Shown here: positions 27,877-29,713 of the stretch, one piece after another
How the letters are laid out: the number at the start of each line of letters is the position of its first letter
Position numbering within the stretch: position 1 is the first letter of the stretch
Notes under the pieces: model-generated
Databases searched by the model: none
What the model saw: only the letters and a program-made list of their open reading frames with translations
Told to the model about the DNA's origin: nothing
Translations under genes and position numbers: made by a program
DNA from: Stutzerimonas nosocomialis
GTDB lineage: Bacteria; Pseudomonadota; Gammaproteobacteria; Pseudomonadales; Pseudomonadaceae
Direction of reading: 5' to 3'
Length of the DNA: 64,000 nucleotides
Assembly: GCF_005876855.1 (NCBI RefSeq)
Contig: NZ_QLAE01000023.1
Location: forward strand, 1 to 64,000

Positions 27877-27964
27877 GTGGGAGAGGTCTTGACCGCGCGA
27901 AAGGCGTTGGCGGTTGGGCAGAAATATCGGTGGCGTACCCTTCGCGGGCGAGTCCCGCTCCCAC
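27877..27964. repeat. Inverted pair of Pseudomonas extragenic palindromes
   Basis: GTGGGAGAGGTCTTGACCGC starts at 27877. A reverse-oriented relative, TTCGCGGGCGAGTCCCGC followed by TCCCAC, lies at 27941-27964. They form an inverted pair of related palindromes downstream of the hemolysin III gene. The rest of 27838-28100 shows no gene. Confidence 0.65.
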
Positions 27965-28100
27965 GGGAATCGCATCCGTGAACGACCTCGCGGTTTCGGA
28001 TGCGTGAACGAAACGTCCGGGGCCCGGCACGATCACAAGGGTATCGCTGCGGTCGGTTGTGCCCATCGGGTGCAGTGGCGACCAGACGGGAGGACGTGCC

Positions 28101-29159
28101 ATGCGATTGAAGCAGACGCCACGCGGGTTCATCCCGCCCTACATTCTCAGCCACATCATCGAGCACGGCTCGGAGCGGCAGCGCTCCTGCGCGCTGGGGA
28201 CGCTCAGCCATGTCCAGGCCCTGCAGCGCAACCCCGGCCCGCCCCTGCATCGGCCGATGCAGACCGCATTGCCGGAGCGCTCCCAGCCGGGCCAGCCCAG
28301 GCGCAGCATCCACGACGCCGAGAACCAGATGCGGCTGCCCGGCCGGCTCAGCCGCATCGAGGGGCAGGGCGCTACCGGCGATGCGGCGGTGGACGAGGCC
28401 TACGACGCGCTGGGCGCGACCTACGAATTCTTCTGGCAGGTGTACGCCCGCCACTCGATCGATGGCCGCGGGTTTCCGTTGATCGGCACGGTGCACTATG
28501 GCGAGCGCTACGAGAATGCGTTCTGGAACGGCGAGCAGATGGTCTTCGGCGATGGCGACGGCGAGGTGTTCCAGCGTTTCACCCGTTCGCTGGACGTGAT
28601 CGCCCACGAACTCGCCCATGGTGTCATCGAGGCCGAGGCCGGGCTGGTGTACTACAACCAGTCCGGCGCGTTGAACGAGTCGGTGTCCGATGTCTTCGGG
28701 GTGCTGACCAAGCAGTACGTGCTCCGCCAGACCGCGGCCGAAGCCGACTGGCTGGTGGGGGCCGATCTGCTCACCGAGCGCATCCAGGGGCGTGCGTTGC
28801 GCTCGATGGCGGAACCGGGCAGCGCCTATGACGATCCGCTGCTGGGCAAGGACCCGCAGCCGGGGCACATGCGCGACTTCATCGACACCCGCGACGACAA
28901 CGGCGGCGTGCACCTCAACTCCGGCATTCCCAACCGCGCGTTCTACCTGGCGGCCAGCGCCATCGGCGGTTACGCCTGGGAGACCGCCGGGCAGGTCTGG
29001 TACGACACCCTGTGCGACCGCGCCCTTGGCAACGATGCGGATTTCGGCGCCTTCGCTGCGTTGACCGTGGCCCACGCCGAGCGACGCTTCGGCGCACAAT
29101 CGGGCCAGGCGCGGTCAATTGCGCAGGCCTGGTCCGATGTCGGCGTAGCCACGGGATGA
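28101..29159 (+). CDS. Protealysin-like M4 (thermolysin family) metalloprotease
   Basis: A 352-residue zinc metallopeptidase without a signal peptide. Near the N-terminus PRGFIPPYILSHI (residues 8-20) matches the short propeptide motif of protealysin-type enzymes rather than the long thermolysin prosequence. The catalytic site is His169-Glu170-Leu-Ala-His173, with the third zinc ligand Glu193 in GALNESVSD and the catalytic His271 in DNGGVHLNSGIPNRAFY. Start at ATG 28101 is behind GGGAGGAC. Such enzymes are synthesised as inactive precursors and are found in the cytosol or released in an unconventional way. The next gene encodes an emfourin-type inhibitor of this protease family. Confidence 0.92.
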   Translation: MRLKQTPRGFIPPYILSHIIEHGSERQRSCALGTLSHVQALQRNPGPPLHRPMQTALPERSQPGQPRRSIHDAENQMRLPGRLSRIEGQGATGDAAVDEAYDALGATYEFFWQVYARHSIDGRGFPLIGTVHYGERYENAFWNGEQMVFGDGDGEVFQRFTRSLDVIAHELAHGVIEAEAGLVYYNQSGALNESVSDVFGVLTKQYVLRQTAAEADWLVGADLLTERIQGRALRSMAEPGSAYDDPLLGKDPQPGHMRDFIDTRDDNGGVHLNSGIPNRAFYLAASAIGGYAWETAGQVWYDTLCDRALGNDADFGAFAALTVAHAERRFGAQSGQARSIAQAWSDVGVATG

Positions 29160-29169
29160 AGGAGGAACG

Positions 29170-29496
29170 ATGAAACGACTGCCAGAGCTGGGACAGGACA
29201 CCGTGGTGCGGCTTTCGCGCCAGGGTGGTTTCGCCGCGATGTCGATGCTCAGCCGCCCGCGGGAAATCGACTTCGCCCAGTGCGATCCGGGCCAGCGCGG
29301 GCAGATCTGCTCGCTGCTCGAAGGCTGTCTGCCGCTGTCCACGCCCCAGGCCGGGCAGGGCGACCAGCGCTACTACAAGGTGGAGCTGCGCTACCGGCGC
29401 GAGGACGCCGACGACGAGCTGGTGCTGCGGATTCCCGAGGAGCGCGCACCGGGAGATCTGGTGCGCCTTTGGGACAAGGGGCAGCTGGACATATAG
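29170..29496 (+). CDS. Emfourin-type inhibitor of the M4 protease
   Basis: A 108-residue protein starting 10 bases after the protease stop behind AAGGAGGAACG. It has the emfourin pattern: an early strand VVRLSRQGGFAAMSM, a helix around DPGQRGQICSLLEGC, and C-terminal strands YYKVELRYRR and ELVLRIPEE. Emfourin was described in Serratia as the operon partner of protealysin and inhibits it by binding the active-site cleft. No signal peptide is present, fitting an intracellular inhibitor that protects the host cell. The assignment rests on pattern and gene order. Confidence 0.85.
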   Translation: MKRLPELGQDTVVRLSRQGGFAAMSMLSRPREIDFAQCDPGQRGQICSLLEGCLPLSTPQAGQGDQRYYKVELRYRREDADDELVLRIPEERAPGDLVRLWDKGQLDI

Positions 29497-29499
29497 CGC

Positions 29500-29713
29500 C
29501 GCTGCCCCTTGGGCGTTTGCCTGCGACGAGGCCGAAGCCGAGCTGACGGCCGTGCTGCGTATACGCAGTGGTGCCCTGGCGACCGTGCTCGATGAACTCG
29601 CCCGCTCCATCAACCGCCCGCAGAGAGAGCCGGTGCCGGCACGGGTACGGTTGATCTACGACTATCTGCTCGAGCGCTTCGCCGATCCGGCATCCTTTCC
29701 CACGCAGCGCTGA
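29500..29713 (+). pseudogene. Probable remnant of a LysR-type regulator C-terminus
   Basis: The open frame ending at TGA 29711-29713 reads like the end of a LysR effector domain: RSGALATVLDELA, then PVPARVRLIYDYLLERFADP, the usual closing region where R-R-F/L-D-F-L appears. There is no start codon, ribosome binding site or helix-turn-helix upstream, because emfourin ends at 29496. It is probably a decayed fragment left by deletion or by insertion of the protease-inhibitor unit. The similarity is short, so another origin is possible. Confidence 0.4.

What the first reader, a model, noticed from the sequence alone, without database searches (positions are those of the whole stretch)
28101..29496. 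Protealysin-like protease with an emfourin-type inhibitor in one unit
The M4 protease lacks a signal peptide, has a short propeptide with IPPYIL, and is followed 10 bases later by a 108-residue gene matching emfourin. In Serratia the pair is a protease with its dedicated intracellular inhibitor, linked to actin cleavage and host invasion. In a pseudomonad-like genome it may be a self-targeting, competition or stress-activated system. The inhibitor differs from the described one enough to merit study.
Basis: partly seen in the sequence, partly recalled or inferred. Interest (0 to 1): 0.72.

Follow-up and report, generated by a model that had tools for sequence, protein, structure and literature searches.

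The report
Intracellular protease with its own inhibitor
Two neighbouring genes of a Stutzerimonas bacterium encode a protease kept inside the cell and a small protein that most likely blocks it; the pair is of a known kind and common in this group, so it is an ordinary find.

Summary
Window 28101-29159 encodes a complete protealysin-like M4 metalloprotease. After 10 bases, 29170-29496 encodes a full-length emfourin-family protein. The closest solved structures are protealysin (2vqx, E 1e-145) and emfourin (6zyg, 44% identity). This is the protealysin operon known from Serratia, here in Stutzerimonas (nearest named relative S. azotifigens).

It is common. In 56 genomes of the genus both families occur in the same 47 and are missing from the same 9. 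In all 80 named emfourin loci kept by a capped scan the protease lies directly upstream. Both genes show purifying selection and co-diverge. The genome has one M4 match. A type VI secretion gene is equally frequent with and without the pair (36 of 47, 7 of 9). This favours a resident protease with a safety-catch inhibitor over a polymorphic toxin-immunity pair. Inhibition was not tested here, and the competition idea is in print (PMC9505478, passages).

A side finding is newer: in another family, a divergent emfourin gene directly follows a different, unclassified HET[GA]H metalloprotease-like gene in 22 of 29 genomes with that gene.

The parts
28088..28094 (+). Shine-Dalgarno-like GGGAGGA of the protease gene
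   Evidence: Sequence; conserved in S. azotifigens locus L183
28101..29159 (+). Protealysin-like M4 metalloprotease precursor, 352 aa (P0001)
   Evidence: Pfam PLN_propep, Peptidase_M4, Peptidase_M4_C; PDB 2vqx E 1e-145
28122..28244 (+). Protealysin-type propeptide match (residues 8-48) with IPPYIL at residues 11-16
   Evidence: PF16485; motif position
28605..28619 (+). HELAH zinc-binding and catalytic motif (residues 169-173); E193 and H271 are the further active-site residues by homology with thermolysin (roles recalled)
   Evidence: HExxH kept in 132 of 132 proteases compared, locus sets overlapping
29160..29166 (+). Shine-Dalgarno-like AGGAGGA in the 10-base gap between the genes
   Evidence: Sequence
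29170..29496 (+). Emfourin-family protease inhibitor, 108 aa (P0002)
   Evidence: PF20242 7.4e-23; PDB 6zyg E 2.8e-21, 44% identity; model pLDDT 88.8, best fold match 6zyg

Best explanation
A two-gene operon of the protealysin-emfourin kind. The protease is made in the cytoplasm without a signal peptide as a precursor held back by a short protealysin-type propeptide. The second gene, translated from the same message, makes a small inhibitor that binds the active-site region of any protease that matures too early, so the cell carries a stored but silenced protease. Activity appears when propeptide and inhibitor control are lost, most plausibly at cell lysis or in stationary phase. Shown here: gene content, intact catalytic residues, conserved adjacency, joint presence and absence, co-divergence, purifying selection, and that this is the only M4 match in the genome. 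Inferred from Serratia: inhibition, 1:1 binding, silent storage and lysis-time activation. Unknown: the physiological substrates in Stutzerimonas.
For: Families and full-length matches. Both families hit the same 47 of 56 genus genomes and miss the same 9. The two genes lie on one strand in 46 of 46 other genus loci and next to each other in 80 of 80 named loci, gene gap -4 to 27 bases. dN/dS medians 0.17 (protease) and 0.26 (inhibitor) over 273 of 1035 pairs; window against S. azotifigens 0.11 and 0.04; correlation of protease and inhibitor distances given rpoB 0.85 in 24 genomes. Single M4_C match in the own genome. Serratia: 1:1 complex at the active-site region; deletion of the inhibitor gene alone lowers FtsZ and brings an earlier fall in optical density (PMC9505478, passages); precursor stored inactive and processed after lysis (PMC6778150, passages).
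Against: No binding, inhibition or expression data for this pair. No complex could be modelled. The single-chain model matches 6zyg only moderately (TM 0.53, rmsd 8.7 A), though it is the only hit at E <= 0.001. No sigma-70-like promoter or operon terminator was found, so co-transcription is inferred from spacing. The residual dS of many pairs lies outside the usable range, and the correlation is not corrected for shared ancestry beyond rpoB.
Confidence: 0.75

Rival explanations
1. Antibacterial effector with immunity protein: the protease is delivered to neighbours (vesicles, lysis or a secretion system) and emfourin protects kin.
For: Proposed for Serratia, with cleavage of FtsZ and RecA (PMC9505478, passages). 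The own genome has a VipB (type VI sheath) match. Gene order enzyme then inhibitor.
Against: No orphan emfourin among 56 genus genomes. VipB present in 36 of 47 genomes with the pair and 7 of 9 without. Purifying selection, largest usable emfourin dN/dS 0.64. One plasmid record in 72,556 and no phage record in 50,697 match the inhibitor. Delivery by vesicles or lysis is not excluded.
Confidence: 0.12
2. Host-directed factor, such as protealysin and grimelysin are thought to be in Serratia, with emfourin as storage inhibitor.
For: Actin cleavage and invasion reported for the Serratia enzymes (PMC7311988, passages).
Against: Present in most genomes of a largely environmental genus and in many soil and plant pseudomonads; no host-interaction genes seen beside it, neighbours are HlyIII-family, exonuclease-like and Mn-catalase genes.
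Confidence: 0.06
3. Emfourin mainly guards against other M4 proteases (foreign or second own enzyme) and its place beside this protease is incidental.
For: Serratia emfourin also inhibits thermolysin (PMC9505478, passages).
Against: Only one M4_C match in the genome; joint presence and absence and adjacency throughout.
Confidence: 0.04

Closest known systems
Protealysin operon of Serratia proteamaculans (pln-m4in; protealysin 2vqx, emfourin 6zyg)
   Same: Gene order, short PLN propeptide, M4 catalytic domain, full-length Emfourin family, only a short gap between genes
   Different: Different genus; inhibitor 44% identical; neighbours not compared with those of Serratia
Protealysin-emfourin pairs of Pseudomonas and other Stutzerimonas
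   Same: Same two genes in the same order in 80 of 80 named loci kept
   Different: The window and S. azotifigens share a chromosomal site of their own, between HlyIII-family and exonuclease III-like genes
Secreted thermolysin-like proteases (thermolysin, bacillolysin, pseudolysin)
   Same: M4 catalytic fold
   Different: Those are exported with long propeptides (recalled); this one has a short PLN propeptide and no visible signal peptide

Membership tests
Protealysin-like protease (M4 subgroup) | M4 catalytic and alpha-helical domains over Pfam cut-off | tested here: met
   100.5 and 178.1 bits against cut-offs 22.4 and 24.4
Protealysin-like protease (M4 subgroup) | Short propeptide with the conserved PPL-type motif | tested here: met
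   PLN_propep 59.1 bits, cut-off 28.1; IPPYIL at 11-16; motif as criterion from PMC6778150 passages
Protealysin-like protease (M4 subgroup) | Intact HExxH and downstream zinc ligand | tested here: met
   HELAH 169-173, E193, H271
Protealysin-like protease (M4 subgroup) | Not constitutively secreted; no signal peptide | tested here: inconclusive
   By inspection of the N-terminus only; no predictor run
Emfourin | Match to PF20242 over cut-off along its length | tested here: met
   81.2 bits, cut-off 27, positions 1-91 of 91
Emfourin | Emfourin fold | tested here: met
   Best and only Foldseek match at E <= 0.001 is 6zyg, but TM 0.53 and rmsd 8.7 A
Emfourin | Next to a protealysin-like protease gene | tested here: met
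   Gap of 10 bases; conserved
Emfourin | 1:1 tight inhibition of the M4 protease | not testable with these tools
   Needs purified proteins or a two-chain structure prediction
Toxin-immunity pair of interbacterial competition | Orphan immunity genes, link to a delivery system, diversifying change | tested here: not met
   No orphan in 56 genus genomes; no excess of VipB with the pair; purifying selection. Delivery without a secretion system not tested

The most novel reading that the evidence does not exclude
Emfourin is not tied to protealysins but is a general cognate-inhibitor module for stored intracellular metalloproteases. A second lineage exists in which a divergent emfourin gene directly follows a different, unclassified HET[GA]H...GGLHE[SA]FGD protein. 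The window pair would be the classical branch of this wider safety-catch system.
Probability: 0.5. Interest if true: 0.5.

Novelty: new member of a known kind. Interest (0 to 1): 0.25.

Why it matters
For the window itself, little: it places a known protease-inhibitor operon in Stutzerimonas and shows that it is a regular part of that genus. It supplies comparative evidence on an open question in the protealysin literature, housekeeping safety catch or weapon, and so far that evidence leans to the former. If the second lineage holds, emfourins would serve a wider set of stored metalloproteases than the protealysins, which could be tested directly.

Tried and rejected
Protease-inhibitor fusion in G001: the emfourin frame there is 485 codons long, but the protease sits in its own frame of 371 and the two align as separate genes; rejected.

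LysR remnant downstream: the 58-codon stretch 29537-29710 looked to me like a LysR C-terminus, but the longer frame holding it has no Pfam hit and the PDB search gave only a chance-level match (E 1.4); not claimed.

Mobile element: emfourin was not found in the phage collection and in one plasmid record only; rejected. The four genus sites could mean relocation or separate acquisition. The protease tree puts the window branch outside clades A, B and D with support 0.97, whereas rpoB joins C and D with 0.975, so some transfer or loss is possible; left open. The operon tree with named Pseudomonas also nests a Pseudomonas group beside genus clade B, so the genus copies are not one clean clade.

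Promoter and terminator scan: no promoter found; one terminator-like site, inside the HlyIII-family gene, at chance level. Defence-system models: no match. The second aligner for folds was not available. Two key papers (PMC10124921 and 10.1016/j.ijbiomac.2020.12.170) are not held, so the published NMR and operon papers were not read. The identity of the protease to 2vqx was not computed.

Full report
What is there. Window 28101-29159 (+) encodes 352 residues and 29170-29496 (+) encodes 108 residues, with 10 bases between stop and start, including AGGAGGA. The first protein matches PLN_propep, Peptidase_M4 and Peptidase_M4_C, the second Emfourin PF20242 along all 91 positions, each far over the curated cut-off. 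NCBIfam gives only weak M4 relatives under their cut-offs and nothing for the inhibitor. Among solved structures the best match of the protease is protealysin 2vqx (E 1e-145) and the only match of the inhibitor is emfourin 6zyg (E 2.8e-21; 44% identity over 112 columns). IPPYIL lies at residues 11-16, HELAH at 169-173, the further zinc-ligand glutamate at 193 and the catalytic histidine at 271; the roles of the last two are recalled from thermolysin. All 132 proteases compared keep HExxH (the two locus sets overlap, so this is not 132 species).

Structure of the inhibitor. An AlphaFold2 model from 31 aligned emfourins has mean pLDDT 88.8, with a weak block at residues 21-30 (mean 61). Foldseek gives 6zyg as the only match at E <= 0.001 (E 1.8e-8), with a moderate TM-score of 0.53 and rmsd 8.7 A. 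The complex with the protease was not modelled, since the tool folds one chain.

Where it comes from. The genome has 4.76 Mb in 86 contigs. The nearest named locus is Stutzerimonas azotifigens 115A1, and further genus loci are Stutzerimonas. I take the window to be a Stutzerimonas close to S. azotifigens (inhibitor 96% identical, protease 95%). The own genome has one match to M4_C, this gene.

How common it is. Emfourin is found in 47 of 56 genomes of the genus and the protealysin propeptide in 47 of 56; comparing the two lists, they are the same 47, and both are absent from the same 9. In the 46 other loci the genes lie on the same strand. One of them, G012, has a protease frame that breaks near its end, cause unknown. 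A scan of named genomes found 236 relatives and kept the best 80; 80 of 80 have the protease upstream, with a gap of -4 to 27 bases, most often an overlap of 4 (39) or 1 (16). In a sample of 398 genomes of the phylum 25 have an emfourin match and 22 a propeptide match, 19 both. Of the 6 with emfourin only, G303, G155, G165 and G384 have a protealysin-like protein on the same strand in the fetched 10 kb (34-52% identity), G348 has another metalloprotease-like gene (below), and G221 is a sub-cut-off match inside an unrelated frame. Of the 3 with propeptide only, G269 and G290 are sub-cut-off matches, and G350 lies on a contig of 3240 bases with too little room left for the second gene (inference).

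Site and history. The genes beside the window operon (spermidine-synthase-like, HlyIII-family, exonuclease III-like, Mn catalase; Pfam, the exonuclease III name is recalled) are found beside the operon in one of 46 other genus loci, that of S. azotifigens; three others have only weak partial matches to the histidine kinase. Upstream flanks fall into groups of 22, 20, 2 (window and S. azotifigens) and 2 loci, plus one locus (L081) that joins the second group on its downstream side. The exonuclease gene itself is present in 52 of 56 genomes, so the site, not the neighbourhood genes, is particular. In the protease tree the window branch lies outside the other genus groups, and the tree is not fully congruent with rpoB. 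Relocation or transfer within Pseudomonadaceae is possible; I did not resolve it.

Regulator or weapon. A pair used against kin-less neighbours would be expected to leave orphan immunity genes, to go with a delivery system and to diversify. None of these is seen: no orphan emfourin in 56 genus genomes; the type VI sheath gene VipB in 36 of 47 genomes with the pair and 7 of 9 without; dN/dS medians of 0.17 (protease) and 0.26 (inhibitor) over the 273 of 1035 pairs with usable dS, after two incomplete loci and four distant outgroups were left out, with a largest inhibitor value of 0.64. Protease and inhibitor distances correlate at 0.88, and at 0.85 given rpoB, in 24 genomes. Only the inhibitor was searched in plasmids (1 record of 72,556) and phages (none of 50,697). 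These results fit a resident enzyme with a dedicated inhibitor. They do not exclude release by vesicles or lysis, as proposed for Serratia.

What the literature says. From passages of PMC9505478: the Serratia pair forms one operon, emfourin binds protealysin 1:1 at the active-site region, deletion of the inhibitor alone lowers FtsZ and brings an earlier fall of optical density, and the authors propose a role in interbacterial competition. From passages of PMC6778150: protealysin is stored as an inactive precursor and processed after lysis, and the PPL motif defines the subgroup. PMC7311988 passages cover actin cleavage and invasion. The word emfourin occurs in two papers of the library; the two primary papers are not held.

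A second emfourin lineage. In G348 an emfourin-family gene (37.9 bits, cut-off 27) follows a protein that has HETGH and GGLHESFGD, scores 19.9 bits against Peptidase_M4 (under the cut-off of 22.4) and has no NCBIfam or PADLOC hit and no meaningful PDB match, alone or as a four-sequence profile. In 145 genomes of that family 30 have a relative, 29 of them strong; in 22 of the 29 an Emfourin match over the cut-off lies on the same strand directly at the end of the protease match. Of the other seven, G539 and G546 end at a contig edge and G518, G573, G542, G561 and G527 have no emfourin match at E <= 0.001. Seven further genomes have emfourin without this protein; their neighbours were not examined. 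In 12 of 12 loci looked at the motif is HETGH (9) or HETAH (3). That this protein is a protease and that its neighbour inhibits it are inferences. One search of the paper library with the terms emfourin, gluzincin, HETGH, DUF4157 and 'M4 family peptidase inhibitor' (two of five needed) returned one unrelated-looking paper; that is a narrow search, not proof of novelty.

Verdict. Real, correctly located, and an ordinary member of a known kind.

Noticed in passing
L110:3283-5264 (G348); also L264-L275 and L282-L287: Divergent emfourin-family gene directly after a HET[GA]H...GGLHE[SA]FGD metalloprotease-like gene that has no Pfam family over its cut-off; 22 of 29 genomes with a strong relative.
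   Followed up: partly
window 28101-29496; L063-L108: The operon sits at about four chromosomal sites in the genus, each tied to a group of species; window and S. azotifigens share one.
   Followed up: partly
window 27941-27964: REP-like palindromic element (name recalled) between the HlyIII-family gene and the operon; the exact 24-base sequence occurs once in the window at up to 3 mismatches and is kept in S. azotifigens.
   Followed up: no
window 29517-29548: S. azotifigens has about 1.6 kb of other DNA at this point just downstream of the inhibitor gene; its content was not identified.
   Followed up: partly
window 29537-29710 (+): Open stretch of 58 codons that by eye resembles the end of a LysR-type regulator; searches did not confirm it.
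   Followed up: partly
L092 (G012): Protease frame breaks near its C-terminal end and the inhibitor start is displaced; mutation or assembly error not told apart.
   Followed up: no
L087, L117, L226, L248, L250, L251, L253, L254: HELVH in place of HELAH or HELTH in the zinc motif of these proteases.
   Followed up: no
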